Both the position numbers and the translations under genes were made by a program. From positions 26,266,647 to 26,330,646 of the forward strand of contig OY987298.1 in NCBI GenBank assembly GCA_963920635.1: a DNA stretch of 64,000 nucleotides, written 5' to 3'. Positions within the stretch are counted from its first letter, which is position 1. Every line of letters begins with the position of its first letter. Below the pieces are notes generated by a model. It did no database searches. It saw only the letters and a list, made by a program, of their open reading frames with translations, and was not told where the DNA came from. This stretch comes from Pseudeuparius sepicola. Its lineage: Eukaryota > Arthropoda > Insecta > Coleoptera > Anthribidae. Shown here in pieces: positions 5,088 through 29,185 of this stretch.

Positions 5088-5176
5088 CAAGTAATAAATT
5101 AAATTAGTTTGTTGCCTCTAATCTTTCTTATTAGTATTAAAGCCATAATAGGATCGCGAACAGTTGGTGGTGATAC

Positions 5177-5203
5177 CATTGGGTAATATTCCTTTACCCA
5201 ATG
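5177..5203. mobile_element. 27-bp palindromic footprint, flanks GTGATAC
   Basis: CATTGGGTAA joined to a 17-bp right end (TATTCCTTTACCCAATG), flanked by GTGATAC at 5170-5176 and 5204-5210. It has the same termini as the 12.7-kb element with two A-to-G type changes. Interpreted as an excision footprint. Confidence 0.75.
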
Positions 5204-5210
5204 GTGATAC

Positions 5211-5885
5211 TTATTATAACCTTTACTCAGGTGATACCTTCAGAAGACCAGCTTGCCATTGCCACCATTCTTGATTGTAAATTCCCTAATTAATTCCTTT
5301 AAATCTATTTTATTTCAAATCTATTTTTCTGCTTATTATTGCTAAATTCGAAAGTCTCGACTGGTTCATAGTAAGTAGATCTTAGAATGTTTTTGTTTAG
5401 CTTCAGTTTTGAAAATGATCTCTCCCGGCATGGTTAAAAATATTCGTAAAGCTAAAAATAAATAAGGAAAGGGACTCTTTAAATTGTATGAAGTTAAGTT
5501 ATAAAGCAAAGTAACAACTAACCCCCACCCCGCACCCCACCCCACTATAATTTTCCTATTGGATTTAGGTATATTTTTAAAAACACCAAACAAAACTGGG
5601 GATTAATCAAAAGGGCGAAATGCGGCACAATATTCATATTTTTGTCGGCTGTGCTATTTGCTATAAACAAAAAATAGGAGTATAGGACACTTATTTAAAT
5701 AGGTATTTTTTGTCGGCGGCGCGGCAGCTGACAAAGACAAAGGGATTACTCTTGTCGGCATCGGCGGCCGGCTATTTTAGTAAATTTTCAGGGATATAAA
5801 AAAAGAATCTGCCTGCCGGGTGCCTGCCGCATAATTTTTTTTATGTTGTTTCAACTGACTGAGAAAAGGAATAATACATAATAAT
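5211..5885. other. Unrecognised AT-rich stretch
   Basis: No gene. GC-richer islands near 5705-5780 (CGGCGGCGCGGC-like). A diverged half of the terminus motif (CTGAGAAAAGGAATAATAC) lies at about 5859-5878, next to the footprint at 5886. Confidence 0.35.
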
Positions 5886-5914
5886 CATTGAGTAAAGGAA
5901 TAATTTACTCAATG
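5886..5914. mobile_element. 29-bp palindromic footprint
   Basis: A 17-bp left end, two filler bases, then TTACTCAATG. The flanks (TAATAAT / ATATAAT) match only in the last five bases, so the duplication is degraded or absent. Lies 0.3 kb upstream of the THAP remnant. Confidence 0.65.
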
Positions 5915-6212
5915 ATATAATGTAGATCAAACAATCCGGAATTTTATTATCGACTACGACCTTATTGGCACTGCGTCGAGAGTTTCGTCGTTGACTGAAA
6001 CCGTGTTTTCTTACGTTCTTCGCTCTTGTGACTTGAAAGTGAAATAGTTATTCTGGAAAATCGTCTTGCACAAAAATATAATCTACCGCCGAAATCAAAG
6101 GAACCGATACGAATATATACATACTCCCTAATTTGTGATCGCATCAACCTAGTAATTCATAATATTACGTGCAAGAATAGGGATTTTTCTGTAAGACAAT
6201 TATTCTCCAGAA

Positions 6213-6427
6213 AAATGCCTATCTCAAAATACAAGTGCGTTTATAATAACAATTGTGACAATTCACGCGCGTCGGGACAATCCCTATTTACGTGTTTTTA
6301 AGCGATGTGGAACAGATCGGTCGGTACATGGTGTACGAAAAACATTTCAATAACAACCATTTTCACTGTGCGGATTCCTCAAAAAAGCGACTTCTATCTA
6401 ATGCAGTGCCGATGCCATTTTTAAAAG
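6213..6427 (+). pseudogene. THAP-domain remnant (P-type transposase exon)
   Basis: Starts MPISKYKCVYNNNCDNSRAS, then an in-frame stop; another frame continues with VYEKHFNNNHF and RLLSNAVPMPF. THAP zinc fingers have C-x(2-4)-C, a distal C-x2-H and an AVPxxF motif. Here the distal Cys is Tyr (YEKH) and the Trp-containing middle is missing. It ends at a good donor, AAAAG|GTAAGT, as for a first transposase exon. No downstream transposase exons are recognisable. THAP domains also occur in host genes, but stops and location favour a transposon relic. Confidence 0.65.
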
Positions 6428-7487
6428 GTAAGTGGCTGCATCAAATAATGGAGTAAATTATTATTTCTTTTAGTAAATTACAGAAAATATTATCGTAAAA
6501 GAAATATTATGTACTTAATGCATTACATGCTTAATGTTAGTAGGTACATTTTTTCATTAAAACCGTTGTGTGAAATATTTGGATAGAGGACCAACGAATA
6601 TAGGCCAGGGTAGATAATTTTTGAGAACAAAAAAATCTAGAACAGCATCACACCCATTGGAAAAGAAAGAAAATATAGCAAAAATAACTGAAAAAATAAT
6701 TTAAGGGCGATTTGAGGTACGGGGGTTGTAGGGGGTGATCTTTTAGGGGAAACTGTTTATCACGATTTCCAGCAAAACTGCAACTCCTATCGAAAAAAGT
6801 TGAATGGCAAAGTTATAGGCAATAAAAAGATCTACAACTTTTGTATTTACACTTTTTTCACATAACCTCAAAATATCCGCGAAAAATCGAAATAACCGAT
6901 TTGTTGGTTTCTAATTTTTACCTCCCACAAAAAAAAATTCCACAAAATTTGGTGGAAACTTACCCTCTTATGTCCCGATCACGCTGTAATTTTTTCAAAT
7001 GAAAATATTTATTTTTACCCCTTTCTTTGATTTTAAACCGAAAAAGTAACGATCCAAAAACCGCGCAAGTGGCGCCCTCTGTGAGATACAGCAAAATTGA
7101 TATTTTTAGCTTATTCTCCATCCCCAAAAACACAGCAGTGCCAAATTTCAGTTCAGCAGCTTCATTATTTTAAGAGATGTAGCCATAATTCAATTTCAAA
7201 AAATGAACTTCAACGCCCTGTATCTCTTAAACAAACAGCATTTCTATAATTCATATTAGCCTCAATCGTCATATTTTGGCCCCAAATATGTGCAGTTGCT
7301 CTATGGACCATTATTAACGGGACACCCTGTATAATTGAATAGTTATAAATATCCACTATTTTCAAGGTAACTACAAGGTAAACTCTATTTTTTTTTCTTC
7401 AAATCGGAACCTATACTTTTTCTTACGGAATCTTAATATGCAGGAAAAAACGAGTGTGTTTGATCTGAAATATTCGTTCATTTGTTC
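6428..7487. other. Intergenic/repeat-derived DNA
   Basis: No gene. Contains a segment (7110-7165: TCCCCAAAAACACAGCAGTG) also found at 43750-43780, and a mariner-type end ACACCCTGTATA near 7322-7333. Confidence 0.35.
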
Positions 7488-7690
7488 TTAAATAATGCAT
7501 AAATAAATCAATAAATGGGGTAATTTTTTTATACAAATGACAACATTAAGAAAATGTTCAAAATGATTATCAACTCCAATGCACTTGTTAATTCGCTTCA
7601 TAAAAAATTCATTTGTGCAAAAGGAATTTATTTCCCTAAATACAAGTAGCAGGTAATGGAATCTGAAAAATGACATCTGTGTTTGCATCC
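7488..7690 (-). pseudogene. Degraded mariner-like transposase C-terminus
   Basis: The - strand reads FFMKRINKCIGVDNHFEHFL, like the end of insect mariner-like transposases (RxNxCIxxxGxHFEHLL). Only this tail is recognisable; the catalytic region was not found next to it. Confidence 0.5.
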
Positions 7691-8046
7691 AACGTGTTTC
7701 TAATTACCTAATCGGTAGGAACTGGAGAAAACTGCGAAATTTTTTGTAATTTATTGCGCTGTAACTTAAGCAGTCAAGATAATAAAAAAAAATGTAAAAC
7801 AAAATTGTAGATCATTTACCCCTCTCCAACTTATATTCAGGTAATTTTTTTGTTAAAAAAAATTTACAAGACCTATCCTGTGGTAAACGAATTTTTTGTC
7901 ATATAACGCCCTGTAAATCAATAAACATTAGAGACACGAAACAATTTTATAATAAAAAGGTGACCAGAAGTTCATCTTGTAAAACTTTTTTAAGGTCATT
8001 CTTTGTTATTTTTTTTACATGACCTCCCCTGCTGCGTGCGAAGTTA
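7691..8046. other. Unrecognised stretch
   Basis: No open frame with a recognisable product; AT-rich. Confidence 0.3.
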
Positions 8047-8990
8047 TACAGTGTGGATAGAAATTGTGGAATATTGCTTATATTTCTTAAAATATTCTTC
8101 ATATCAAAAACATGTTTTAATAAAAGTGTTAGGGGAAATTATTTCCCGTTTAGTGATATCAAGCAATCTTTCGTAGCACCAAAAATGTTGTTGCCATGGT
8201 AACCGATTTATTTTTTTAAATGGCACCATATACTTTTTTTGGTGAAAATTGATTCATTGGAACTTTCTGAATACGATACAATACAATTTTAATGGGGTCG
8301 CATAAGAAAAAAAACAAGGTTTCTATTATGCTATTGACAATGTTTATCAAAATAATTATTAACATCAAGTTAGCCATGCCAAAATCAGAACAATGCGAAA
8401 CTGACACTATCTGTGTAACTGTGTACATTGTTACACTAAACGTACTTTTTTACTAATTTTTCTGTGTACTTAAGTACTCAGTATGTTAACCTGTATTCTT
8501 TCCGTTTCACTTAATTGAAGCGCCATTATAACTTACTAAGTACTTAAGTGCACAGAAAATTGAGTAAAAAAAGTACGTTTACTGTAACAATGCACACAAT
8601 TACAAGCAACTGACAGCTAGTGACAGTTTCCCATTGTTCTGATTTTGGCATGGCTAACCTGATGTAATAATTATTTTGATAAACATTGTCAATAGCATAA
8701 TAGAAAACTTAATCTTTTTGTATTTTTTTCTTATGTGACCCCATTAAAATTGTATTGTATCGTATTCAGAAAGTTCCAATATATCAATTTTCACCAAAAA
8801 AAGTATATGGTGCCATTTAAAAAAATTAAATCGGTTAACATGGCAACCACATTTTTTGTGCTACGAAAGATTGCTTGAAATCACTAAACGGGAAATAATT
8901 TCCCCTAACACTTTTATCAAAACAAGTTTTTCATATGAGGAATATTTTAAGAAATATAAGCAATATTCCACAATTTCTATCCACACTGTA
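8047..8990. mobile_element. Large foldback element, about 440-bp arms
   Basis: Arm 8047-8482 pairs with 8534-8990 (outer ends TACAGTGTGGATAGAAATTG and its inverse), with scattered mismatches and small indels and a 51-bp loop. No transposase. The outer TACAGTGTG is mariner-like. Short frames on either strand simply mirror each other. Confidence 0.85.
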
Positions 8991-9374
8991 TTGTCATGCA
9001 GGTAATGCGCTGTAACTCATGTATTAATACTTTTATTGGAGTCGTTTTGCTCTAAAAACATGTTTAGGAAACTACCCCCATTGTTTAGGAAACCACCTTA
9101 TAGCACAATTCGTACCAGGAGTTCGAGTGTAACCTTTTGGTTGGACACTCAGGAGGCAGTCCCCTGACATCTTTATTAGACTAGTTCCCATTATTATTTT
9201 ATTTTGCAATTGAAACACCCGCGTTTCTTTTATTTTTTAACGAAATAATGTGCCTAGAGGATACAAAACGATTAGTGCGGACCCTGCCCCTGTCCTTGTA
9301 AATATCTATCTATCCCTCCTCCGATTTTTGTCTATGGAAAAATAAAATATAATACCGGAATTTTTATTAAAAAA
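8991..9374. other. Unrecognised stretch
   Basis: No gene or repeat recognised between the foldback and MITE A. Confidence 0.3.
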
Positions 9375-9735
9375 TAAAAAACCTTTTTTAAAACAAGCCT
9401 TTATTTAAGCCATTTACCTACTAAAACAGATAAAATAAGTTTAGGTTTTCGTTAAGATAATTCAATGTCAAACTGCGACAAGCTTTTTTAAATCAAAAAG
9501 CAGCTTGTCGTGCGAACTGTTAAGAAACTACATACTTTAGCACCTACTTTCCTTATCAATTGATAAAATTAATTGGTACCTACCTACTTTTATGAACATT
9601 TCGCGCGACAAGCTTTTTGATTTAAAAAAGCTTGTCGCAATTTGGAATAGAATTATCTTATCGAAAACCTAAACTTCTTTTATTCGTTTTAGTACATGGC
9701 TTAATAAAAAAGCTTGGTTTTAAAAAGTTTTCTTT
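9375..9735. mobile_element. MITE family A, copy 2 (inverted context)
   Basis: Shares terminal and internal inverted halves with 4736-5087. Next to it (9736-9782) is the tail of minisatellite X (GATTCCCATG, reverse), the same junction as at 4670-4735 but inverted. Confidence 0.75.
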
Positions 9736-9790
9736 ATTTTTATTTTATTTTATGCTTTTTAGCACCTATTTGATTCCCATGCCAGGAAGG

Positions 9791-9900
9791 ACATACATAC
9801 ATACATACATACATACATACATACATACATACATACATACATACATACATACATACATACATACATACATACATACATACATACGTACGTACATACATAC
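9791..9900. repeat. (ACAT)n microsatellite
   Basis: About 110 bp of ACAT repeats with two ACGT interruptions near 9883-9892. Translates to artefactual Thr-Tyr-Ile-His repeats on one strand and Tyr-Val-Cys-Met on the other. Confidence 0.98.
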
Positions 9901-10010
9901 AGTTTGTGTACATCAAAAAATTGTATTTATTAAACGCAGTAAGAAACCATCGAGCCACGCCAGACGATTCCCCAATAATAATTATTAATAAAAAAAAATT
10001 ATCAAAAAAA

Positions 10011-12410
10011 TTAAAACCGACTTCAAAAATTTGCCCGTATGCACACTCCACTAAAAATTTTAAAATTACAAAAATTAACACCGACTTCACAAATTTGCGC
10101 GTATGCACATTTAAACTAAAATTTTAGAAATAGGTTGCTCTTTCTAAATTGAGGTATCTTTGGATTTGGTGATTTAGTGGAAAGTGCATACGGGCAAAAT
10201 TTTGAACTCGGTTTTATTTTTTTTGTTAATTTTTTTATTTATTATTTTTAGTGAATTATTAAGAATTATCGAAATCGGTCCAATATTAAATGTCATCCCC
10301 TATTTTCCACCCTTACGGGTGGAATTTTTTCTTCAAATTTAAATGAAGCCACTCCTAAAGTAATCCCTTTCTAATAAAAAAAGAATCATCGAAATCGGTT
10401 CAATATGAAATTTCATCCCCTATTTTTCCACCTTTAGGGGTAGAATTTTTTCTTCAAATTTAAATGGGGCCACCTCTAAGGTACTCCCTTTCTAATAAAA
10501 AAAGAATCAACGAAATCGGTTCAATATTAATTTTAATCCCCTATTTGTCCACCCTTAGGGCTGGAATTTTTTCTTCAAATTTATATGGGGCCACCTTTAA
10601 GGTACTTCCTTTTTAATAATAAAAGAATCATCGAAATCGGTTCAATATGAAATTTCATCCCCTTTTTTTCCACCCTTAGGGGTATAATTTTTTCTTCAAA
10701 TTTAAATGAAACCACTCCTAAAGTAATCCCTTTCTAATAAAAAAGAATCACCGAAACCGGTCCAATATGAAATTTCACCCCCTATTTTTCCACCCTTAGA
10801 GGTGGAATTTTTTCTTCAAATTTAGATGGGGCCACCTCTAAGGTACTCCCTTTCTAATAAAAAAAGAATAATCGAAATCGGTTCAATATGATAGTTCATC
10901 CCCTATTTGTCCACCCTTGGGGTGGAATTTTTTCTTCAAATTTAAATTAAACCACTCCTAAAGTAATCCCTTTCTAATAAAAAAGAATCACCGAAATCGG
11001 TCTAATATGAAATTTTATCCGCTATTTTTCCACCCTTAGGGTGGAATTTTTTCTTCAAATTTAAATGGAGCCACCTCTAAGGTACTTCCTTTCTAAAAAA
11101 AACATCGAAATCGGTTCAATATGAAATTTCATCCCCTATTTTTCCACCCTTAGGGGTGGAATTTTTTCTTCAAATTTAAATGGGGCCACCTCTAATGTAC
11201 TCCCTTTCTAATAAAAAAAGAATCAACGAAATCGGTTCAATATTAAATTTAATCCCCTATTTGTCCACCCTTAGGGGTGGAATTTTTTCTTCAAATTTAT
11301 ATGGGGCCACCTTTAAGGTACCTCCTTTTTAATAAGAAAATAATCATCGAAATCGGTTCAATATGAAACTTCATCCCCTATTTGTCCACCTTTAGGGGTG
11401 GGATTTTTTCTTCAAATTTAAATGAAGCCACTCCTAAAGTAATCCCTTTCTAATAAAAAAAGAATCATCGAAATCGGTTCAATATGAAATTTCATCCCCT
11501 ATTTTTCCACCTTTAGGGGTGGAATTTTTTCTTCAAATTTAAATGGGGCCACCTCTAAGGTACTCCCTTTCTAATAAAAAAAGAATCAACGAAATCGGTT
11601 CAATATTAATTTTAATCCCCTATTTGTCCACCCTTAGGGGTGGAATTTTTTCTTCAAATTTATATGGGGCCACCTTTAAGGTACTTTCTTTTTAATAATA
11701 AAAGAATCATCGAAATCGGGTCAATATGAAATTTCATCCCCTATTTGTCCACCTTTAGGGGTGGGATTTTTTCTTCAAATTTAAATGAAGCCACTCCTAA
11801 AGTAATCCCTTTCTAATAAAAAAAAGAATCATCGAAATCGGTTCAATATGAAATTTCATCCCCTATTTGTCCACCCTTAGGGGTGGAATTTTTTTTTCAA
11901 ATTTAAATGAACCCACTCCTAAAGTAATCCCTTTGTAATAAAAAAGAATCATCGAAATCGGTCCAATATGAAATTTCACCCCCTATTTTTCCACCCTTAG
12001 AGGTGGAATTTTTTCTTCAAATTTAAATGGGGCCACCTCTAAGGTACTCCCTTTCTAATAAAAAAAGAATCATCGAAATCGGTTCAATATGAAATTTAAT
12101 CCCCTATTTGTCCACCCTTAGGGGTGGAATTTTTTCTTCAAATTTAAATGAAGCCACTCCTACAGTAATCTCTTTGTAATAAAAAAAGAATCATCGAAAT
12201 CGGTCCAATATGAAATTTCATCCCCTATTTTTCCACCCTTAGGGGTGGAATTTTTTCTTCAGATTTAAATGAGGCCATTCTGTAGGTATACCCTTTCAAA
12301 TAAAAAAAGAATGGTCCAAATCGGTTTTTAAATGACGGAGTTATGAGGTAACAAACATAAAAAATACAACCGAATTGATAAACCTCCTCCTTTTTTGAAG
12401 TCGGTTAAAA
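10011..12410 (-). mobile_element. Complete satellite-bearing element with TIRs
   Basis: Begins TTAAAACCGACTTCAAAAA and ends in the inverse (TTTTTTGAAGTCGGTTAAAA). From left to right: a foldback module (10011-10250), about 17 units of the 121-bp satellite (10255-12330, reverse orientation) and a single-copy tail with AACTCCGTCATTT on the reverse strand. Locus 590-3636 is the same element, inverted and lacking the outer tail. No protein gene; non-autonomous. Confidence 0.75.
10255..12330 (-). repeat. 121-bp satellite array, about 17 units
   Basis: Same unit as 590-2520 in reverse orientation (CATCCCCTATTTGTCCACCC core). A block near 10370-10620 recurs near 11450-11700, a higher-order duplication of about nine units. 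Confidence 0.9.
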
Positions 12411-12779
12411 ATCTATTGCCCCACAGAAAAAGAATTCATCGTAGCTTCGCGCACGGCATTTGTTTTTTTTTGGGTCAAGGTCAATAAATTAGCATCGCAC
12501 CCGTTGTCACCGATGATATGGCAACGTCTGAAATGTTCCCGTTTAGAGTTTTAAACTTATATCCTTTCAATACCACAATTTTTTCTACCGTGGCCCAGAT
12601 GGCGCCCAACGCGATAGCGATTTCTTCTGTAAACTTTGCCTGTAGTAAGCTCAAGAACTTTCAGAGAATGTTTAAATTTATGGTGAATGCACTGGGTCAA
12701 ATTCCCTGTCGCATCGGGAAATAGGGTGTTACAGATCCGGCCATTTGCTCGATTCCTCTTATTATTCCTTTACTCAATG
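12411..12779. other. Right subterminal region of the 12.7-kb element
   Basis: No convincing gene. Reading inward from the right end, a short frame begins ATGGCCGGATCTG but stops after 15 codons. Confidence 0.35.
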
Positions 12780-12786
12780 GTGGAGT
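12780..12786. repeat. Target-site duplication, right
   Basis: GTGGAGT immediately after the right terminus; only one copy belongs to the LINE reading frame. Confidence 0.85.
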
Positions 12787-13048
12787 CAAAGAATTGCGAT
12801 AAAGGCTCCCCCACGCCACCAGGCCATAACGTATCAACGATTCGACCAGAGCCCTGTATACTGTCATCAATAATTCTTTTGTTAATATCTGTCTTAAAAT
12901 ATAGAATTTATAAATCAGTTTCCAAATGTTCTTCGTTAATCTTAAATCATGTTCATTCCATTTAAGGTGTTTATCTATTGTAATACCAAGATATTGAATC
13001 GTATTAGTAGCATGTATATTATCGCTTCAATTGTCAATAAAAATAGAA
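12787..13048 (-). pseudogene. LINE reverse-transcriptase relic, thumb segment
   Basis: The - strand reads TIQYLGITIDKHLKWNEH and later YRALVESLIRYGLVAWGSLY, both hallmarks of the post-palm (thumb) part of non-LTR reverse transcriptases. It is open up to the boundary with the 12.7-kb insertion and continues at 112-1. Upstream it is interrupted by a roughly 0.6-kb element (13049-13657). Confidence 0.8.
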
Positions 13049-13657
13049 TGGGGTTGTTGCACTAAGTTAAAATAAAGGTGTAAACTTATATTTTCTAAGC
13101 GAGAAAACTATTTTTTCTTCCTGTATTCAAGTTTTATTCAAATACAATTTGTAACAAAGCCGCTATTGCATTTTAAAATATAAGTTTCCAACAGTGACGT
13201 CATTAAGCGGCTTTCTAGGTATTTTAGTATTGTTTCGTCGACAAATTGGTAGTTGCAGTCAGTAAAACGTCATTCAGGACAGTTGTCAGCTTGTATGTAT
13301 GTTTTTTGGTTCGTATTTTTCAAGAATTCCCAAAAATCTCGTGAAATGTTTCACAATGACGGAACTAATCGACAGGTGAAACAAAAAAAGAAAGGTTATA
13401 ATTTGATTTTTTTCCACAAAAATCATAAGTTTTTTGTCAACGGAACCAGATAACCATTGTTGCTAAAAGAAGCACCAACATTTTGAACTAAAAATAACTA
13501 ATTTTTCAAAAAGCCGCTTGATGACGTCGCATAAACAGAAAATAATTATTTCTGGGCTTAAATAAACTCAAAACGAAAAAACCAAAAATACGGGTCCGAT
13601 ATTTTTGTTCATAGATTTCATTTTTATAATAACAAAAATAGGTGCAACTTCCCCATT
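13049..13657. mobile_element. 0.6-kb element interrupting the LINE relic
   Basis: The LINE reading is broken between about 13048 and 13658. The intervening DNA begins GGGGTTGTTGCAC and ends with GTGCAACTTCCCC, a short imperfect terminal inverted repeat. No transposase is visible inside. I infer a non-autonomous DNA element; the superfamily is unknown and the exact ends are approximate. Confidence 0.5.
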
Positions 13658-13659
13658 AA

Positions 13660-13905
13660 AATTTGGACAGATAGCAGTTGTAAGCGAGAAGGCCATATAT
13701 TTAGTTTTTGAGACATTTAAGGTAAGTTTAAAATAATCTAACCAAGTTTTATTCTATTCATACCATTAGCACCGGATTCCCTCACAGACTGCCAAGTGTC
13801 TCCAGAAAACACCACACCGTATCATCGGCATATGATATCACAGGCCCCTTCTGTACATCAATATCAGTCAATGAAAATAAATTTTTCCTGGGCATCAAAC
13901 AGTCT
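13660..13905 (-). pseudogene. LINE reverse-transcriptase relic, palm segment (YADD)
   Basis: The - strand encodes a FSLTDIDVQKGPVISYADD-like block, with the catalytic YADD codons at 13821-13832. Further fragments resemble RIKTWLDYFKLTLNVSKT, split by at least one frameshift and stops. It is the catalytic part of the same LINE whose thumb lies at 12787-13048. The copy is dead. Upstream sequence (13905-14100) keeps only weak similarity. Confidence 0.7.
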
Positions 13906-14099
13906 ATGGCACTGGCTGAAGAGTGGGACTTCTCACACAACTCGCGTCCCCAAGGTCCAGACTTGCCCCCGTCTTTCGCGCCGTATTTAACAGCGGAGGA
14001 TTTTCGGGGCCCCGAAAATACGCCTATCAGATTTGTAAAGGACCAAGGGACCTTTTTTTATTGTTGCTCCATGGGCCTTCTTTCCTATTTTGTTCTATA

Positions 14100-14575
14100 A
14101 TCATATGAGAGTAGATTTGCCTAAAAATTAATCATAACTTCTTTAAATGACAATGATCGGGCCCATATTAATTGAGGCAACCTACCTCCTTTAAGTAAAG
14201 AAATATACTATGTACATTTTACATAACATCTTATTTTATAATCTTATGAGAGTTGAAATCATGCGACCCGCTCTCATACTATAAATAACAGAATTTTAAA
14301 GCATTGCAATCTTTTGAAAAAAAAAAACTCATCAATATTTAGTAACAAACAGTTTATAGAATAATAAAGTTAGCGATATAAAATACTTTTTTACAGATGT
14401 TATTAAAAATAAAATATAATTTTTTTATTCGGCATTAAAAAGCCTCAAACCAATCATTTAAAGCTCAAAATGTGGCACTAAGGTAAGCCAATATAGTACT
14501 CTTTTTTTCTACATAAATAACTATTTAACAACAAAAATGTCATTTCAAAACAGACAGTAGTACTATTAAAAGTAA
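14100..14575. other. Unrecognised AT-rich stretch
   Basis: No gene seen; lies between LINE remains and the hAT fragment. Confidence 0.3.
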
Positions 14576-14599
14576 TTCACGGTTAACACTAATGTTATA

Positions 14600-14735
14600 A
14601 GTAAAGAGCGGAATATATGCATTTAATTTCAATCGAAATATGCGCATATATATGCATCATTTTTATTTAAAATATGCAATAATATGCATTTATTTTGCCA
14701 AATATGCAATAATATGCATTTATTTAACATGTACA
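14600..14735. repeat. ATATGCAT-rich subterminal repeats
   Basis: Repeated AATATGCAATAATATGCATT (two exact copies near 14669 and 14699) plus ATATATGCAT variants. Repeats of this kind flank hAT transposase genes; the hAT tail lies next to it. Confidence 0.65.
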
Positions 14736-14864
14736 AATACCTTAAAGAAAACCCAAACTGATTTTAGAGAAAAGGTTTATTTTAGGAAAAATGAAAGGAA
14801 AACAAATACATAAAATACCTTGTAAAATACCTATATTAAAGCAGAATTATAAAAACATTTTAAT

Positions 14865-15095
14865 TTAAAATTTTATAAAGTAGGAATTTATGATTAAATA
14901 CTTTTCAAAGTTTTCCAATAAGAATATTTGCCTTCTGTCCGTAAAAATATGTTTATATATCGAAAAGCTTCTCTCAACATCTGCCGATGTAATAGGTTAA
15001 TATTTTAATTTCGGTAGTAAGATATAAGGCCAAGGTGCAACTTCGTTGGATGATTTACCATCAAAAATACTCTTTACTGCCATTAAAGATTTGAA
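14865..15095 (-). pseudogene. hAT transposase C-terminal dimerisation domain
   Basis: The - strand reads SADVERSFSIYKHIFTDRRQ then FLLENFEKYLIINS and a stop, the hAT C-terminal hallmark (SVERSFS...LTDRR...ENLEKYL). Upstream and in frame is WPYILLPKLKY, one stop, then PITSADV. Further upstream the reading is lost. The DDE/RNase H core is not found. A dead fragment with ATATGCAT subterminal repeats on its 3' side. Confidence 0.85.
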
Positions 15096-15099
15096 TCCT

Positions 15100-18785: not shown

Positions 18786-18794
18786 TATCACAAA

Positions 18795-19403
18795 CAGCCA
18801 GGTCTTTTTTTAAACAGTTTTTATCTACAACTATAAGTTTATTTTACGTTTGTGAGGTACCTTGGGAGAGAAATAAAATTACAAAAATGAACACCGAGAA
18901 AAACTACATGATTAACTAAGTACAAGACCTAATCTTATTAGTCCATCCCGAAATCTGTGAAAGTTCTTTGGGTAGATACATTTAACAAAGGAAGAAAGTT
19001 CAAGTACGTACCTATTATACCTACATAATATTACAAATGGTTTGAGGAGAACCTGGTAACAAGGTGCAATAGCGACAAATTCTCAAATAAGCAAAATCGG
19101 CACTGACTTGCCATACTTATATTACTTAAATTCCTGGAAATAATTCCAGGAAACCAAATTCAAATATAAAATAAATTTGATTCATTTGGCACTTGCCATA
19201 TTCTGTGTTTGTTGACAGAACATTGTCAAGTCTAATTTTTAGAAATCATATTAATTTTTACTAACAATCAAAGTACCTGTTATATCCATACATTCTCCAA
19301 TAAAATTGCATACTTGGCATCATTGAGACCATTAGAATGGGGAAAGAAACGGCCTCACTTTGGAAAGTATAATGCTGGGTCCCCTTACTTTAAAGGGTCC
19401 CTG
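18795..19403 (+). mobile_element. 5'-truncated copy of the 944-bp hAT-like element
   Basis: Similar to 61390-61996 and ends with the same TIR (CCCTTACTTTAAAGGGTCCC TG). The left end is missing. Confidence 0.75.
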
Positions 19404-20788
19404 GAATACCCTTTTATAACCTATAATAAGTCGCCATCTTTTTCATCGAGTAGCACCACCCCAGTCCGCAAACAACAATGAAATATGACGTCATGCTCGG
19501 GTCTTTAACAAGTTGACTGCCACACATAAGCAAGGAAATTTTTGTCCCAGACGCGAAAACGTTTAATAGTATATTTCATTACGAGTCTGGAAATAAATAT
19601 TTTTCAGTGCGCGGGAAGTCATGCAAGCACGGAAAAATCTATTTCTGACGTGTAATGAACGATATTTTTTATTATACATACTTCTTTGAAAACGGAAACT
19701 TAAAACATTTTATCGGCATATTATAATAAATTTAATTGACAAAAAATAAACAATGCAGACAATATAGTGTTTGGTATGTATGATGCGTTTCCATGGTTAC
19801 TCTCAAATTATTTCAAAGGTGCTTTGTTGTAAATTAGTTATTGTCAGAAAAGGTGAATAAAATGTCAAAAATATTACAGAAATGTATCTAAATAGTGAAA
19901 CACTTACGAATTAAAATACAAAATAGGTATATGTTCAATATCAGAGAGCATATAGAGTTTCTTAAATTTAGTTTACTTTGCTGTATATTTCTATTTTAAA
20001 GCCATATATTCGGTATTTTTATTCAGCGCACAGAAAGTTCTTCCATGCGCTGTTTCTGTGCGCTAGCCCGAAAAACCCCATCTTTAATTATTGCTAAAAC
20101 AGATGAAAATAAGGTGTTTTCAAAGAAGTATAATAAAAATCACTTTTTCTTGTAGATTTCTACTCAAAGAAAACATTTCATATATATTTTTTTATTTTCC
20201 ACCCTATTTTTGTCTTTTTTTACCCTTCCGAATTATCTCGTAGTTGGCTCCAACAAAACCTTGCCGCATGGGCACCTGCCAGAAAAAAACGCCGGGAAAC
20301 AAGCTACTGTTGTCCTGTGTGTGAAGAAAAGCCTGCATTATGCAATTCCAACCATATATATTTTTTATAGTTATCTCTTAAAAATAACCAAGCAGTAAAT
20401 TTTTATTTTTTGATAAATTTCTTCGAATATGACGAATTCACATCTTTACATGGAATGCTAAAAATATATCGTTAGAGATAACTGTATAAAAATATATATG
20501 GTTGGAATTGGGAGAACAAAAGAAACTTAAAAAACCCAAAAAATACAGGTGTCTCAAAAATCGACAAAGTGATGTTCACTTCCGGTAAAACCGGAAGTCA
20601 GAAATGAAAACCGATACTTTTTCGTTACTCCCCGTATACTCATTACTAATATTTCATTAAAATCCAACTTCACAATTTTTTGGAAAACGGTATTTTTTAA
20701 AATACCTTTTTAACAACACCCGGTATATTAAGTTTGACGTCACATTCGAATTCCTCGGAAAATTCTACACAAGTCTGGTTTTTCGAAC
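19404..20788. other. Intron DNA with small hairpins
   Basis: No gene. An inverted repeat of about 35 bp pairs 20343-20378 with 20474-20508 (AATTCCAACCATATATATTT). Another hairpin is around 19576-19680 (TTCATTAC/GTAATGAA). The repeat shared with 15340-15460 starts near 20745. Confidence 0.4.
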
Positions 20789-20800
20789 CATGAATTTATC

Positions 20801-21736
20801 AATAAGGATGTAAGATTAGCGAGTGTAAATGTAATAATTACAAGAAAAGGTGATAATGGGCAAACACTCAAAGTTAACAAAAAGAAAAAACTAGTAACCG
20901 CATACACGTGTTTCATGCTATTTGGCAATTATCAGTACGGTGTAACATTAACCAAATCAAAAGATAGGCATGATTTGGGAAGCAACAAATGAAGTCCAGG
21001 CAGGAGCCAACAGCACATTTGCAGCTTCAGTCAGCACATCCCCCATTTTGGGGCTTGTACTAACATCGCCACGGAGGCTGCTAAAGCGACCTGTGTGGAA
21101 ATCTTCATAACCCAAGATACAATGACAATAAGGATGTAAGATTAGCGAGTGTAAATGTAATAATTACTAGAAAAGGTGATAATGGGCAAACACTCAAAAG
21201 TTAGAAAACAAAAAAACTAGTAACCGCATACACGTGTTTCATGCTATTTGGCAATCATCAGTACGGTGTAACATCAACCAAATCCAAAAGATAGGCATGA
21301 TTTGGGAAGCAACAAATGAAGTCCAGGCAGGAGCCAACAGCACATTTGCAGCTTCAGTCAGCACATCCCCTATTTTGGGGCTTGTACTAACATCGCCACG
21401 GAGGCTGCTAAAGCGACCTGTGTGGAAATCTTCATAACCCAAGATACAATGACAATAAGGATGTAAGATTAGCGAGTGTAAATGTAATAATTACAAGAAA
21501 AGGTGATAATGGGCAAACACTCAAAAGTTAGAAAACAAAAAACTAGTAACCGCATACACGTGTTTCATGCTATTTGGCAATCATCAGTACGGTGTAACAT
21601 TAACCAAATCAAAAGATAGGCATGATTTGGGAAGCAACAAATGAAGTCCAGGCAGGAGCCAACACGTGTATGCGGTTTCTAGTTTTTTCTTTTTGTTAAC
21701 TTTGAGTGTTTGCCAATTTTCACCTTTTCTTGTAAT
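20801..21736 (+). mobile_element. Element with three tandem ~330-bp units, 12-bp flanking repeats
   Basis: Begins AATAAGGATGTAAGATTAGC; about 2.6 tandem units of roughly 330 bp; ends with an inverted piece of the unit (CACGTGTATGCGG... CCTTTTCTTGTAAT). The flanks are exact 12-bp repeats CATGAATTTATC (20789-20800, 21737-21748). A related uninterrupted site is at 15385-15410. A reverse-orientation copy lies at 48319-48842. Units contain short open stretches on both strands (for example IWEATNEVQAGANSTF) without a recognised family. Superfamily unknown; long target duplication is reminiscent of Mutator-like elements. Confidence 0.75.
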
Positions 21737-21869
21737 CATGAATTTATCTTTAAAATTACCCAGAAAATCGGGTTTATCGCGTTAACTGGGACACCCTGTA
21801 CCTCTGCTCTGAACTTTTAGTAAGAAGCCCGCACAAATTTCTCGGGTCCAAAGTCGAATGTTTGTTTAG

Positions 21870-22120
21870 GCCGTGGCGGCAGAGGTGGCCGTGGGGGCCG
21901 TGGCGGTCGCAACCGTGACGGCGGCGACCGAGATGGAGGCGGTCGCGACGAAGGTGGCTGGAGTGGTGGTGGCGGCGGGGGCGGCGAAGCGGGCGGAGAA
22001 GACGGCGAGCCCCCGAAACCCAAAGAAATCTACATCCCGGTTGAGAGGACCAAGGATGAAGATCTGTTTACTCAGACCATACAGTCTGGGATTAATTTTA
22101 TCAAGCTCGATGAGATCGAG
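21870..22120 (+). CDS. vas: vasa exon B (RGG repeats to start of helicase region)
   Basis: 251-bp exon in phase with exon A (TTTAG acceptor; donor GAG|GTGAGT, phase 0). It begins with about seven Arg-Gly-Gly repeats, then a GGGGGGG run and an acidic PPKPKEIYIPVERTKDEDLF segment. It ends with the motif SGINFIKLDEIE that precedes the Q motif in Vasa proteins. The KEIYIP and GINF signatures separate Vasa from PL10/DDX3 and other DEAD-box helicases as known from the family. RGG repeats are substrates for arginine methylation and Tudor binding in known Vasas (family knowledge, not shown here). The first codons repeat the end of exon A at the DNA level, see findings. Confidence 0.95.
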
Positions 22121-23193
22121 GTGAGTTTTACACTTTCATTTTTGTGCCACTATCGTTTTGGGTTTGGATAAAACGCGAGTCAATTTTTTTTACCTATTTA
22201 CATCGCACGCACAATTCAATTAATTTAAGTGAAAATTCCCGGTGTTTTTTTATAAAAAAATTATGCTTGCCGAACAAATGGGTCTTCTGTAAGAAATCGT
22301 TGATCACATAAATATGCACGGACGTAGTATGATGTTAATGAATTAAGAAAACATGAGTTGCAAGAGAGAAGTAGGTACCCTTATTTATTATTTTAGACAA
22401 AATGTTTATAAAACAAAGTCGTTTATGATCTAAAGTGAAGCCTACATTTTGAAATAAAAACTCCGATTTTTAAATTTAAAATAATAATGGGCCTTTCCCA
22501 CACTTTTATAAGCCTATCATGAAATTTGTTGGAAATAAAGCTGAAAAATATGTTTTCTTCCTATTTTTTCTGATTGAGTAAGGCCTTAAAATTAAATATT
22601 AGGTTCAAATTTTCAAAAAAGCTGTGCTTAAATTTTATCATTGTGGTCAACATTTTGCTATTATATTTGCTTCTCACCTTTTTGAGTCGTCATTTCAAAT
22701 TTTGAACGAGGGAAACAATATTTGGAAATGTTAATTATATGATGACAACAGGGCAAATCAGTATGTACTTTCAATGATCTTAATGAAGGTAATTCTACCT
22801 AAAAGTCGTTAGAACCCCTAGCCCGCAGGATTCATTCATAAAGTTTGTTTTATTTTGCAAACGATATAACTCTTGTCTTACAATGAAACACTGAGCACTA
22901 GGTCATTGACTCCGGGCAGCACAGGCACAAACACTGTAATCCCTCATCATTTTCGAATAGATACCTATTTCAGACTCGCACAAATGTCTAGAATTTTTCC
23001 AATAATCACTAGATGTAGTAAATTCAGTAAACACAACCACCGCTTTGTCAATCTGCCATTACATTGTGCAGCGGTGCTGGATGTTGGGACAAACCCGATT
23101 TCCCAAGTGGAATAATGTAAAGCCGTAATTGGTTTTAAGTTTTAATTAATATTTCACTTTCGATTTACCTGAAGTTATCAACAATAAGTATGT
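22121..23193. other. Intron DNA, nothing recognised
   Basis: AT-rich, no conserved reading frame. Confidence 0.3.
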
Positions 23194-23201
23194 GTAATGT
23201 T

Positions 23202-24349
23202 CAAGGGCGCCCATAGAAAATATTTTAGGGGGGGGGGGGGGCAAAATTATCTCATCTAACCTTGTTCTTTTTAGAACTACCTAGCTCTGAATCGATAATT
23301 GGTTTATGTGATTGTGGCCCAGTTAAATTTTGTATAAAATATTTCAGGGGTTTGTTTTATACAGGGTGTCCCGAAATTAGCCTGCCATAATTTACCAGCG
23401 TGTTCTACGACCTAAAAAAATTAAAAAAGTTCCTATAAACATGGTCTCAAGGTAGCGATAGTTAGACATTCCTAATCATAGGCGTCCCAAATGGGGGGGT
23501 TCAGGAGTTAAAATTATCCCAAATTTTTTTTGTATACTTTTTTCCAGATTTCTTGCAAAATTATGAAAGTTGAAGGTATTCTACGAAGAAAAGGTGCTCT
23601 TGTTGAACTTCGATAGCATGCATCGTTTTCGAGTAAACTCATTTTGAAAATTTTTTGCAGAGTGCCATGAAAATGCCTATTAGAAATTAGCCTGCCACAA
23701 TCTACCACCACGATTTTTGATACAAAAAAATGAAAAAAGTTCCTATAAACATGGCCTCAAAAAAGTCCCCTAAGAGGGCTATAACCCCCGAAATGGACAC
23801 TTTGGCAAACGGTTTTTTCTAAATATTTCCAGAACGAACAAAGATAAAATTATGAAATTTGGTGTGTGATATATCTGTGAGCTTTGACGTTTACCGAGGT
23901 AGAGAGAGTTTGACATTCTTCATCATAGGGGTCCCAAATAAGGGGGTCAAGGGGTTAAAAATATCCCAAAATTTTTTCTGCGCTTTTTTCATGGTTTATT
24001 CTCCCAGGTGTGTCACATACCAAATTTCAGAATTTTATCTTTGCTCGTTCTGGAAATATTTAGATAAACCGTTTGCCAAAGTGTCCATTTCGGGAGCTAT
24101 AGCACTATAGCCCTCTTAGGGGGCACTTTTGAGGCCATGTTTATAGGAACTTTTTCATTTTTTTAGGTCGTAGAACATGCTGGTAAATTATGGCAGGCTA
24201 ATATTGGGACACCCTGTATACCTACCTGGAAGGATATGAAAATAATCTTTTCCTCAACTATAATAATATAAAATATAACGCGAAGGGATTTTGAGAATCT
24301 CCAGGGGGGGCACGTGCCCCCCCTTGCCCCCCACCTATGGGCGCCCATG
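23202..24349. mobile_element. hAT-like element, 8-bp duplication, carrying a nested insertion
   Basis: Ends CAAGGGCGCCCATAG and CTATGGGCGCCCATG, flanked by GTAATGTT at 23194-23201 and 24350-24357. Poly-G near each end. Without the nested element (23362-24216) it is about 290 bp, so non-autonomous. Confidence 0.8.
23362..24216. mobile_element. 855-bp mariner-type foldback, TA duplication
   Basis: Ends CAGGGTGTCCCGAAATTAGC and the inverse with a few mismatches; TIRs reach about 85 bp and a second inverted pair lies inside (AAATTTGGTGTG / CATACCAAATTTC). TA at both borders. No transposase. Confidence 0.8.
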
Positions 24350-24357
24350 GTAATGTT

Positions 24358-26680
24358 GTAATTTATCTCTTGTTGCCACAAAGTCCATTTTAAGATAAAA
24401 TGGCCCCGCTACGTTCTGTACTATCGGCTATTAGGCTGTGACCTGTTTATGGCAACAGAACAAAAATGTAAATAATAGGATCTGTATCAAAATCAAATAA
24501 CTCTGCCGCCTGATGTAAACAAGAGCATGTGGTGTTGAAATATTCGCCAGAGCCACACTCAGGCACAAAATATTACTTTTACAATGGTTTACGTCAAAAT
24601 GTTTCGGGAAAAAATTATTGGCTTCATTAAAACAGTTCAAAACATCGATAAAATTATTTGTAGCAGTATTTAAATATCTTAGACGCATGTGAAAACAACA
24701 AGATAAAACCGCATAAATACACTTGCGATCGAGTACACCTGCTGTCAGGCATGCGTGTTATTTGGCCTATAGTCAAACACATGCTTTTATTTACGCCAGG
24801 CATCAGATTCGAGTATAGGGATTCTGATAACTTGGTTCTACCTTTTTTTAACATAAGACCGCACTCCTTTTACAGTTTTAAGTAATCTCAAATCGATTCC
24901 GAATCACTTTGAGATCACTTCAGCTGACATCAAGTGTTCCTTTTACACATCTTCAGTTGATTATGAAGTGATCAGTTTACGCAGCAAATCGATTTTTATG
25001 GAATTTTTGTTGGTTTTGAGTGTTTATGGGGTTAAGGTGGTGAAAAATATTGAAAAATTCATTCAAGGGTTAGATTATAGATAACGTGATCGTACACTGT
25101 TCCATTTACCAATAAAAATCATTTCACTTTCACTATCAGATCATTTCATGTTCATTTCACTTCAAATTCACTTGTGCAAAAAGTCAAAAGGAGGACAACT
25201 TATGCAATACAAAGCATGGATGGGTACGGCTCTGCCTGAGATGATCTGACACAGCATAGCAATCGGCTACAAAAAAGGGCTGAAAATAAGCTGAATCAAA
25301 GTATTATTATAATTGTATAAGTGCAGGAATCTAAAAATAGTTGAGACACTACTGTATGTATACAGGGTGTAAATGAATAAGTGTAAAAAAATTCAAGTGG
25401 TGAATCTTTGAGTGATTCTAAGACGAAAAGTTTATATAAACATAGGTTCGGTAATGCTTCCTTTTCAAGATACAGGGTGTCAAACTCTTCTTAAAAAAAC
25501 GCTTTTTCGTAAATATCTCAATAATAATCCTTTAGCCGATTTTGTTGAAATTTGGCAGTGTCATTTATGGTAGAAAGAGGCTAATTTAGCCCCTACTAGA
25601 TTAAAATTATTAAGTACAGTGGCGTCCCGAGGGCACCTTAACCAATAATTTTGTAAAAAAAATGTGCGCCACTGACTTTTTTAAAACTTTTTTTTCCGCA
25701 TTCAGCAACTAAAAATACAACTTTTTTGTCTCTTGAATTATTCTCCTATCTCGCTTCGTTTTCGAGAAAAAAAAAATAAAAATAGCTTTATTGCATGTCT
25801 CCGGGACAACATAATAAAAAATTAAAACTACCAATTAACAAAAACTAGGGTATACCCGATATTTTTTCCATATATAAGAATATTCCCAAATTGCTCAAAA
25901 TGATGAAAAGTGTGACGACCCACTTCAAACGGAAACACCCCTATAAAATTTGTATTTATCACCCGATTTTAATAGAGTTTTTATAAAAGATCATCAAAAA
26001 CTGTACTTTAGGCAAAAAACCAAGGCCTACTGACATATTTTTGGTGTCAAAATTAGAGAAATCGTATTAGGCATATTTTTTAAAAAATTCTTTATATGCA
26101 CTTATTACACAAGAGAAACAAGAAAATATACCAAAACTACAATTTGTACAATGAAATTTTCTAAAGTAAATCAAAAGTCGGCCAAATTAACAAACTGCTT
26201 TACCAACCAAGCTTTATTTGACCTCCAGACCCCATTTTGGACTCAATCAGCTGTTTTGTTGGACTGCCCTGTAAAGTATAAAAATTAGGTTTACAAATTG
26301 AAAATGTCACTGCTGAACTTATTGATGGAGAAGGAAGACCATGGGTTAGGTTTACCTACAGACAAAGATTTGCAGTGTTGTCAGATTTAATATTTAATAC
26401 CCAATAGAAACATTGATTTCTAAATTCATTTGGTTCAAATTGCTAGATTTTTAGTATACATTGTGGGACAAACCAAATTTGAATATTGGAATGTTTCAAC
26501 GGTTTCTCTATTAAAAATTTCGTGGTTTTATGAGAACTACACTAGAGGAAAATCGAATTATTGTCCCTGGTAATACCAATTTAAACAGGAGGCTGCTCGA
26601 TCTAGGGAAATCATCACAAAAATTAAAAGTACCTGAAAACCTGCTTCACACACTGCAATAATTTGAAATGCGCTTTTTTG
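24358..26680. other. Intron DNA, mostly unrecognised
   Basis: No gene supported. Mariner-type ends (TACAGGGTGT) near 25360 and 25460 without a recognised partner. 24890-25200 has several TTCACTT/AAGTGA motifs. Confidence 0.3.
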
Positions 26681-26689
26681 ACGTCATTT

Positions 26690-26736
26690 ATTATTATATT
26701 ATTATAATATAATTATAATATATATATTATATTAAT
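26690..26736. repeat. AT-rich simple repeat
   Basis: ATT/ATA-type low-complexity tract. Confidence 0.8.
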
Positions 26737-26848
26737 GACGAGAAAATTCGGAATCGATTCAAAATTAATTTTCGACTGAAATAAACATAAGATTTACAAA
26801 ATATGCATGTTCATGCAACTTTCCTATTTAGTAAACATTAATGTTACG

Positions 26849-27147
26849 TCAGCAACCATCTTGTTTTCTGAACATTTTGTTTAGATTATCTCTCCTTTTT
26901 TGAGTAAACCACTGTAAAAGTCCCTTACCTATCTCTTCATGAGCTGTTTTTTTTTTGCAATTAACATTAACGTTACCATGCAATGATAAAATATCTTTTC
27001 TTTTCTTCCAAGTTACGGACATGGTAGCTTTAGGCAAACTCATTTCATGACAAATGTCACTCTGCTTAGCGCCATTTTGTAGTTTTTGAATAATGTCATA
27101 CTTGTCTTTTAGTATTAACGCTTTATTTACGTTTTTGTTTTTCCATT
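26849..27147 (-). pseudogene. pogo/Tigger-like transposase N-terminus
   Basis: The - strand encodes KALILKDKYDIIQKLQNGAK, then SLPKATMSVTWKKRKDI and AHEEIGKGLLQWF, a CENP-B/psq-type HTH followed by a Tc5-type HTH. A frameshift lies just after the start (MEKQKRK|KALIL). It stops at 26849, before any DDE core, so the copy is truncated. The matching terminal repeat lies at 27345-27509. Confidence 0.8.
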
Positions 27148-27344
27148 GTGAATGACCAATACGAGACTATAAACTAAACTAATAAGATTCACTCTGTTCA
27201 CAGTAGAATCTTCAACGCTACTGATAAAATTAATGTAGGTACTTCACATCCGAAGTTAAAATTGGGGAACTACCGGGGAACCACCGGAATTGCCCGGGGA
27301 ACCCCCAGAAAGTTTACTATAAACCGAAATTTTATACTGTACGT

Positions 27345-27509
27345 GAATAAAATTTGGTTCACTTTATCCGGAAGTTCATTATAAGCGGTTTCATTATACC
27401 CGGATAAAAAATGTATTAGTCTTATGGGAAAAATTTACGGTACCTAAAGTAGACTTCACTATAGCCGGAAGTTCACTAAAAGCGGGTTCATTATATCCGG
27501 ACACCACTG
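27345..27509. mobile_element. pogo/Tigger terminal region
   Basis: Two tandem copies of TCCGGAAGTTCATTATAAGC-like sequence. Outer end ATATCCGGACACCACTG followed by TA, the Tigger-type terminus (inverse CAGTGGTGTCCGG). The opposite terminus was not found. Confidence 0.7.
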
Positions 27510-28244
27510 TAAACAATTTTGGTAGTTTATAAATACTAAAGGTCTGCAAAAATGTTACAAATTAAAAATTACTCATCTACATATTTTCATAAAGCAAAAC
27601 AAAAATATAAATTAGAGAATGCTTGAAATTTTGATGGTTTTAACGTACTCTTTTCATACGCCGCTGGGTCGGTTGGTACCATAGACTTATGAACAAGGGA
27701 GACTCAACCATTCATTGTTGAATAGGCTTTTGTTGTGAATCAAACATTGCTATGAGTGCGAGAGAGAAAAAAGAGAGAGAGAACTTCATAATTCCGACTC
27801 CGAGCATCGCGGCCCAGGTTGACCAGTATAACATAATATAACATATTATACAGATCATTGGTTCCACAAAGGCACAGAAAAACAGCAAGCGCTTGCTGTT
27901 TTTCTGTGACGAAGGTAAGCAATATATTACGAAGGATTTTTTAACTGGCATCATAATAACAATGTTTTATAATGTTATTGTGCAAAATACTGGAAATTAG
28001 TTAGCAATTATTTTACGATATGGAAATAAAACAAATTCCTGTATCAATCTAATATCCAATAATATCTAAAAAATTTGTTTAGATGCAAGTCTCTTTTGCC
28101 ATTTTGTTCTCAGGAAATATCTGTTGTGAAAATATATCATGTAATTAATTATAATTATCAATATTATTTACTTAACTAAAAACTAATTTATTATTTCAAC
28201 ATAAAATTTAATATGTTTCTGATTTTATATCTTTTTTGTGATTT

Positions 28245-28880
28245 TTAATTATTATATTCATATTTGTCAGATTTACTTATTGGCCTACAGTGCCCTAGAA
28301 CTGCTATGGTTTTTGCAAAAGGCAATGAAGACGAAATAATAGCAATTATTCCTCCCCTCCTCTGCACTAGCATTAATGTGCTTTTGAGGTACTTGAGGGT
28401 GAGAATTATTATTATTATTAAATTGATAATAAAGCCATTTAAAGCTACGATCATAAACACTAATGCTTCCCTGGCCTCAGGAAGAGTATTTTCATCGATA
28501 TTGGTACCAATATATATGTATCCGATAAATTTCTGTCCTGTGCAGTCAACCTGCTTCCTTACTGACATCTCATCTGGCAAGATTACATAGCAAAGACTTG
28601 AATGACTCTTTTTGTTTTAAAGTTAAAGCTGTAAGAGCTTCGTTGGTGAATCCTGGACTGCCATCGATTGATCTGTACCATTTAGACAAGGTTTCTATAT
28701 GCCAATGTCAGTGCAAATGACCTTAAACTTGAATCTTGAATTATTATACTTTGCGTGGAAGGTCCTTTTAATAATCTTTCAAAGACATCTACGGCAGGTC
28801 CCGAAACTGATACCTGTAATGAAATGAAAATATTTATATTTTCGGCAAATAGGAGAAAAAAAAAACCAAAAGTTTCCAAT
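28245..28880 (-). pseudogene. P-type transposase, RNase H-like region
   Basis: The - strand contains SLRSFALTLAY, then in another frame KWYRSIDGSPGFTNEALTAL, then EMSVRKQVDCTGQKFIGY and LPEAREALVFMIVALNG. These are the SxELRxFAxxL, IDGSPGF, DEMxIRKQ and EALVFMxVALNG blocks of P/THAP9 transposases. At least two frame changes and a lost segment after VALNG show it is dead. The DEM acid is a proposed catalytic residue in the family. Confidence 0.85.
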
Positions 28881-28973
28881 TCCGGCTACCCTGTACAGTG
28901 TAATTGGTTGAGAGATACCTACATTTGAATTATTAAGTTACATGACAACACGCTAGGGCAAAAACACTTTTAC

Positions 28974-29185
28974 CTTTATTGTGGATTCTGATGACTCCGA
29001 TATGAGAAATTTTTTCTTTAAGTAACGCAGAAGGGATTGCAGGGATGTAATTCGGAGCTTCAATCTTCTAACAGTCATTTGTAGGGTGTGACCATTGAGT
29101 GAAGGAATAAATACTCAATGGTGTGACTTCGTTTTCTTTGCTTTCCAACAGTTTCTTGTACTACTGCTAAATTTCTCCTTCTTCT
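28974..29185 (-). pseudogene. P-type transposase, coiled-coil exon, split by a footprint
   Basis: The - strand reads TLQMTVRRLKLRITSLQSLL then YLKKKFLISES, the leucine-rich segment that follows THAP in THAP9/P transposases. It ends ATAAAG|GTAAAA. Removing 29093-29127 (palindrome plus one GTGTGAC) joins it in frame to an upstream open stretch (VVQETVGKQRKRSH). With the insertion, the frame is lost. Confidence 0.8.
29093..29120. mobile_element. 28-bp palindromic footprint, flanks GTGTGAC
   Basis: 17-bp left end CATTGAGTGAAGGAATA plus a 10-bp right end ...TACTCAATG, flanked by GTGTGAC (29086-29092; 29121-29127). Lies inside the coiled-coil exon of the P-type relic. Confidence 0.85.

What the first reader, a model, noticed from the sequence alone, without database searches (positions are those of the whole stretch)
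5170..29127. Three 27-29 bp palindromes look like P-type excision footprints: 17 bp of one end plus 10 bp of the other
At 5177, 5886 and 29093 the palindrome is made of exactly 17 bp of one terminus and 10 bp of the opposite terminus, with 0-2 filler bases. The first and third are flanked by perfect 7-bp duplications (GTGATAC, GTGTGAC). P transposase is known to cut with a 17-nt stagger inside the terminal repeat, leaving 17-nt single-strand tails whose repair creates such scars. All three sites thus record former insertions of the family that still resides at 113-12779. Such micro-elements could be counted genome-wide as a transposition fossil record. If instead they move on their own, they would be among the shortest insertions known.
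Basis: partly seen in the sequence, partly recalled or inferred. Interest (0 to 1): 0.87.

Follow-up and report, generated by a model that had tools for sequence, protein, structure and literature searches.

The report
Thousands of P-like transposon excision scars
The short palindromes are repair scars left where a P-element-like jumping gene was cut out, and this insect genome carries at least fifteen hundred of them, enough to read how the DNA was cut and mended.

Summary
The palindromes are real. They are excision scars, not a self-moving micro-element. The genome (769 Mb, probably a beetle) holds at least 1517 palindromes with two perfect 10-nt arms (reversed-pattern control 0), against about 60 resident ends per side of the element in the window. 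Of 79 distinct scars that I kept for having matching flanks, 71 have perfect 7-bp duplications; at shifted registers none match. Junctions are diverse. Most are pieces of the left (L) and right (R) terminus joined without filler, often sharing AT or TA, as in end-joining of Drosophila P breaks (PMC2895639).

(1) 17 nt is not the general edge: 1334 of 1586 scar arms with nt 1-17 intact go on with the element's base 18. L survives to nt 25 and then stops (1 of 85 listed goes deeper). R beyond nt 21 was not found genome-wide. I infer longer, unequal tails. (2) The palindromes at 5177 and 5886 are old scars carried inside copies of the resident 12.7-kb element; only 29093 is an independent local event. 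P-type transposases abound, but none was tied to these ends.

The parts
113..12779 (+). resident 12.7-kb element of the family: 18-bp perfect terminal repeat (imperfect to about 27 bp), 7-bp duplication GTGGAGT, two opposed 121-bp satellite arrays inside
   Evidence: related copies with matching duplications at C1:7998700-8009767, 10228621-10242533, 12106857-12119432
106..112 (+). target-site duplication GTGGAGT, left copy
12780..12786 (+). target-site duplication GTGGAGT, right copy
113..137 (+). left terminus nt 1-25; nt 25 is the deepest point kept in all but 1 of 85 listed deep-left scars
12759..12779 (-). right terminus nt 1-21; scars keeping 22 or more nt of it were not found
5170..5176 (+). 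duplication GTGATAC, left copy
5177..5203 (-). 27-bp scar, 17 + 10, inherited inside the element; both arms carry a G/C change at position 6 that the three other copies examined lack
5204..5210 (+). duplication GTGATAC, right copy
5886..5914 (+). 29-bp scar, R19 + L11 sharing 1 nt, inherited inside the element; flanks 5 of 7 matching
   Evidence: L054
29086..29092 (+). duplication GTGTGAC, left copy
29093..29120 (+). 28-bp scar, L21 + R9 sharing TA with one later substitution; independent former insertion
29121..29127 (+). duplication GTGTGAC, right copy
6213..6425 (+). degenerate exon with a marginal THAP-like match, inside the element
   Evidence: PF05485 18.4 and 18.8 bits, under the 23.9 cut-off

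Best explanation
The palindromes are end-joining scars of excised P-superfamily-like elements. A transposase cuts the transferred strand at the element border and the other strand inside the terminal repeat, so each flank keeps a 3' tail of element sequence next to its 7-bp duplication. The tails are trimmed and joined, blunt or through 1-2 nt of shared AT/TA; now and then sequence copied from the tails is inserted. The result is: duplication, part of one terminus, part of the other terminus, duplication. Shown: the composition of scars, duplications, numbers and retention limits. Inferred: the enzyme, the order of cuts, and that the limits (25 nt left, 20-21 nt right) equal the cut positions. 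Some scars lie inside element copies and have spread with them.
For: Genome-wide 1517 palindromes with perfect 10-nt arms, control 0; 3175+3189 17-mer matches against 163+156 in control. Census of the first 100 listed exact 17-mers: 101 occurrences examined, 79 in 61 scar rows, 53 rows with perfect duplications. 71 of 79 distinct scars kept at <=1 mismatch have 7/7 duplications, 0 of 79 at shifts 1-5; 20 of 20 further scars 7/7 (17) or 6/7 (3). No-filler L+R joints: 36 of 50, 65 of 76, 75 of 85. Two-nt overlaps 14 of 36 against 17% expected. Sharp limits: L24-25 27 of 85, deeper 1 of 85; R>=20 126 matches, R>=22 0. Resident ends 60 and 62. Drosophila P breaks give the same kinds of product. 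Abundant P-type RNase H domains, 150 of 1302 candidates scored, 0 of 14 control genomes.
Against: No transposase was tied to these ends; the THAP-like exon is under the Pfam cut-off. In one search, 22 of 101 occurrences are not in scars by my rule; of these, palindromes at L014, L047 and L057 lack matching flanks, L083 is a degraded one, and L056 and L042 end in a duplication without a right arm. 14 of 50 and 11 of 76 do not decompose without filler; some of those belong to a sister type with long AT-rich arms. Identical 37-mers at many loci (14 of 76) could also suggest a mobile unit. No empty site or element/scar pair at the same locus was compared.
Confidence: 0.9

Rival explanations
1. Canonical 17-nt P stagger. 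The extra bases (up to 25) are added by brief templated synthesis before joining, for instance on the sister copy.
For: 17-nt tails are known for Drosophila P (PMC7776569, passages; PMC2895639). 252 of 1586 arms stop at 17, and joins ending exactly at 17 are common among them.
Against: 84% of arms pass 17. The deep-left lengths do not decay smoothly but rise at 24-25 and then stop (21:38, 22:17, 23:2, 24:12, 25:15, deeper 1). The right limit is exact (126 at >=20, 0 at >=22). The 32-bp product expected from 17-nt tips is rare (0 of 61 rows; 5 places among the rows listed).
Confidence: 0.3
2. Self-contained micro-MITE of 27-37 bp moved by the transposase.
For: The same 37-mer occurs at 14 of 76 and the same 36-mer at 8 of 76 distinct places; those fetched have different flanking duplications except one pair sharing ATATTAT.
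Against: No single unit: scar lengths 20-82 bp. Junctions are combinations of two termini. The 37-mer equals L20+R19 sharing AT; the leading AT join has a similar share in Drosophila (14 of 66 isolates by my sum of the table). Deleted Drosophila P copies need at least 138 and 216 bp of the ends to move (stated in PMC1562414, passage).
Confidence: 0.04
3. Internally deleted resident copies from aborted gap repair rather than completed excision with end joining.
For: A few scars keep more than 20 nt of the left end; aborted repair synthesis is common in Drosophila (PMC2895639).
Against: Breakpoints should then scatter inward over tens to hundreds of bases; instead the left stops at 25 and the right by 21. 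Deletions with inner breakpoints 30 nt or more from both ends were not searched for.
Confidence: 0.05

Closest known systems
Drosophila melanogaster P element excision products (P{wa}, PMC2895639 Table 1)
   Same: Two partial termini between intact duplications; joins through AT/TA near tail tips; blunt joins and templated inserts.
   Different: Tails of 17 nt and 8-bp duplications there; here retention to 25 (left) and 21 (right) and 7-bp duplications. There experimental single-site breaks, here a genome-wide fossil set.
Galileo and 1360, P superfamily (PMC4168063)
   Same: 7-bp (sometimes 8-bp) duplications, Galileo consensus GTANTAC, palindromic target motif. Here T at position 2 and A at position 6 in 88% each; one resident copy has an 8-bp duplication.
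   Different: Terminal sequences and long Galileo repeats (40-bp conserved ends) differ from the 18-bp CATTGAG repeat; no transposase comparison was possible.
Anopheles P-MITEs (PMC1562414)
   Same: Non-autonomous P-related units flanked by perfect duplications.
   Different: Those have 5' and 3' P parts under 100 bp plus an unrelated core and 8-bp duplications; the scars here hold nothing but terminus pieces.

Membership tests
P superfamily transposon (for the resident element) | 7-8 bp target duplications with palindromic preference | tested here: met
   GTGGAGT at 113-12779; three further copies with 7- or 8-bp duplications; preference T2/A6 (both orientations pooled, so symmetry is built in)
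P superfamily transposon (for the resident element) | terminal inverted repeats with CA...TG ends | tested here: met
   18 bp perfect, CATTG...CAATG. That CA...TG is typical of P ends rests on the Drosophila and zebrafish ends quoted
P superfamily transposon (for the resident element) | THAP domain and P-type RNase H transposase encoded by the family | tested here: inconclusive
   THAP-like match under cut-off in the window copy; PF21787 domains abundant elsewhere in the genome but not linked to CATTGAG ends
P superfamily transposon (for the resident element) | long staggered cut leaving terminal element sequence on the flanks | tested here: inconclusive
   scar composition fits long tails, but no cut was mapped
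Drosophila-type P cleavage | 17-nt stagger at both ends | tested here: not met
   1334 of 1586 arms pass nt 17; limits 25 and 21. Indirect: scars, not cuts
micro-MITE | one conserved full-length unit at many loci | tested here: not met
   lengths 20-82 bp and many different junctions

The most novel reading that the evidence does not exclude
A P-superfamily-like transposase in this lineage cuts with longer and unequal staggers (about 25 nt at the left end, 20-21 nt at the right), and the genome keeps a base-resolved record of well over a thousand germline breaks that it made, so both the cut and the repair can be read from one assembly.
Probability: 0.55. Interest if true: 0.75.

Novelty: new variant of a known kind. 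Interest (0 to 1): 0.62.

Why it matters
Excision scars are known from single-site experiments. Here one assembly holds at least 1517, roughly 25 times the number of resident ends of the window's element. This turns two hard questions into counting problems: where the transposase cuts, and which germline end-joining routes operate over evolutionary time. It also warns that thousands of 25-40 bp palindromes with perfect duplications could be mistaken for tiny MITEs, and that copy number badly underestimates past activity.

Tried and rejected
Chance matches in IMG/VR: the 17-mer hit 10 contigs once each, which I take as background. Micro-MITE: rejected on junction diversity. Exact 17-nt edge: rejected as a general rule. 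Transposase inside the window copy: no open frame of 110 aa or more within it resembles one by eye (one search list; only nine chosen frames were sent to Pfam), and the one THAP-like exon stays under the cut-off. Linking P transposases to CATTGAG ends: not achieved; R-end and transposase places were compared only by eye. A genome-wide scan for other scar families, empty sites and longer internal deletions was not done. Paper listings showed no title describing a genome-wide P scar census; papers seen as passages: PMC7776569, PMC10983969, PMC4168063, PMC1562414; PMC2895639 passages and section 7.

Full report
What is in the window. The element at 113-12779 ends in an 18-bp perfect inverted repeat, CATTGAGTAAAGGAATAA, flanked by GTGGAGT twice. 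Allowing mismatches, the two ends stay alike to about nt 27: left (L) CATTGAGTAAAGGAATAAATAGGGGAA, right (R) CATTGAGTAAAGGAATAATAAGAGGAA. Against the real termini, however, only the first is 17 + 10; the second is R19 + L11 sharing one base, and the third is L21 + R9 sharing TA, with one substitution. Three palindromes with arms of 8 or more and a perfect 7-bp duplication lie in the window, against 0.075 expected from Markov sequences; the third of those three is an unrelated one at 38557.

Genome-wide. The window lies in a 769-Mb assembly of 16 contigs. The 17-mer with up to 2 mismatches occurs 3175 + 3189 times, against 163 + 156 for the reversed control. Two perfect 10-nt arms within 20-50 bp occur 1517 times, control 0. 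I fetched the surroundings of the first 100 listed exact 17-mers (C1, 0-15.3 Mb). Of 101 exact occurrences, 79 lie in 61 scar rows with flanks matching at 5 of 7 or better, 53 of them perfectly; one scar is listed twice because two fetched stretches overlap. The other 22 occurrences include six ends of three complete large elements; single ends with other interiors; palindromes without matching flanks (L014, L047, L057, and degraded L083); truncated ones (L059, L082); and two structures where the left terminus is followed at once by the duplication (L056, L042). With 20 more scars, 79 distinct scars kept at one mismatch or less have 71 perfect duplications and none at shifts of 1-5 bases. The duplicated target prefers T at position 2 and A at position 6 (88% each; both orientations pooled).

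Composition of the scars. In the listings, 36 of 50, 65 of 76 and 75 of 85 are a left piece and a right piece with no base left over. Overlaps of 2 nt are more frequent than random breakpoints give (14 of 36 against 17%). The commonest string, 37 bp, is L20 + R19 sharing AT (14 of 76). Longer scars hold inserts that look copied from the tails: for example 43 bp (L084), 64 bp (L046) and 82 bp (L038). These are the product classes described for P{wa} breaks in Drosophila: short AT/TA joins, blunt joins and inserts (PMC2895639, section 7). There the leading AT join makes 14 of 66 isolates by my sum.

The 17-nt claim. Among scar arms with the first 17 nt intact, 663 + 671 continue with A, the element's base 18, and 129 + 123 do not (symmetric scars count once per arm). 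Scars keeping 21 or more nt of the left terminus: 107, of which 85 were printed with letters. Their longest left match is 21 in 38, 22 in 17, 23 in 2, 24 in 12, 25 in 15, and 29 in one. Right-type arms of 20 or more: 126; of 22 or more: 0. A sister terminus (AATAATAG) gives 36, so some of the 126 belong to it. I conclude that something ends the left tail at nt 25 and the right tail by nt 20-21. The simplest reading is a longer and unequal stagger than the 17 nt of Drosophila P (PMC7776569, passages). Templated extension of 17-nt tails is the main rival. Eight of nine deep-left structures in the fetched loci have intact duplications.

Inheritance. The 27-mer at 5177 and the 29-mer at 5886 recur with homologous flanks inside other copies of the large element (L053, L068, L078; L054). 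In the window copy both arms of the 27-mer carry the same G/C change, absent in the three others. Eleven of 25 listed 27-mers lie within 15 kb of a resident R end, 0.1 expected, and by hand 17 of 25 lie within 12 kb of a resident L end. So the exact 17 + 10 string is in good part one old scar multiplied by its carrier.

Residents and enzyme. R ends: 60; L ends: 62 (30-mers with up to 2 mismatches); ends of the sister type: 15. Diverged or differently built relatives are not counted, so the 25:1 ratio of scars to resident ends is for this element only. The P-type RNase H domain (PF21787) gives 1302 candidates; 150 were scored and all listed rows are over the cut-off, many in long open frames; 0 of 14 control genomes. 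I did not find a transposase between CATTGAG ends. In the window copy only a degenerate THAP-like exon remains (18.4-18.8 bits, cut-off 23.9).

Organism. The window holds two exons of a vasa/DDX4-like helicase. Among named hits to one exon, the beetles Tenebrio molitor and Oryctes borbonicus stand out (81% and 78% identity over 52% of the query). Beetle is an inference.

Verdict. Excision scars of a P-like element: about 0.9. Longer, unequal tails rather than 17 nt: about 0.55-0.65. Self-moving micro-element: about 0.04.

Noticed in passing
window 38557-38588: 32-bp palindrome CACAGAAA...TTTCTGTG with perfect 7-bp duplication CTTCAAA: looks like a scar of another family; its length would fit 17 + 17 sharing TA. 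A 55-bp relative-looking palindrome with an 8-bp duplication is at L024:586-640.
   Followed up: partly
window 50435-50467; L041:4742-4769; L040:9578-9602 (= L041:1978-2002); L033:7823-7856; L047:706-726: More short palindromes with perfect 7- or 8-bp duplications and other terminal sequences, as if several families leave scars.
   Followed up: partly
window 5177-5203: Both arms of the inherited 27-mer carry the same change (CATTGGG...CCCAATG) while three other copies have CATTGAG...CTCAATG: a concerted change within a palindrome.
   Followed up: partly
L020:927-984; C1:8009738-8009805 (L055): Two scars in a row sharing the duplication ATAATAG, and a full element beside a 30-bp scar at the same target: repeated insertion at a used site.
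   Followed up: partly
L038:8823-8904 and L046:1556-1619: 82- and 64-bp scars with internal repeats of tail sequence, like polymerase-theta-type templated insertions.
   Followed up: no
C1:2645951, 5140127, 10653324, 13332645: 44-50 bp palindromes with the same outer 10 nt but long AT-rich inner arms: perhaps a sister family with different subterminal sequence.
   Followed up: no
C1:26461271, 26476850, 26492429: The same 32-bp scar three times at 15,579-bp steps, suggesting a tandem triplication after the excision.
   Followed up: no
window 590-2367 and 10261-12326: Two opposed arrays of a 121-bp satellite inside the resident element.
   Followed up: no
window 37256-37600 and 58963-59517: Exons that look like a vasa/DDX4-type helicase gene spanning the window; a Tc1/mariner-like transposase frame is at 45247-46353.
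   Followed up: partly
C1:26238679-26239074 and genome-wide: Many near-identical P-type transposase domains, several in open frames of 700-866 aa: P-superfamily elements may be recently active here.
   Followed up: no
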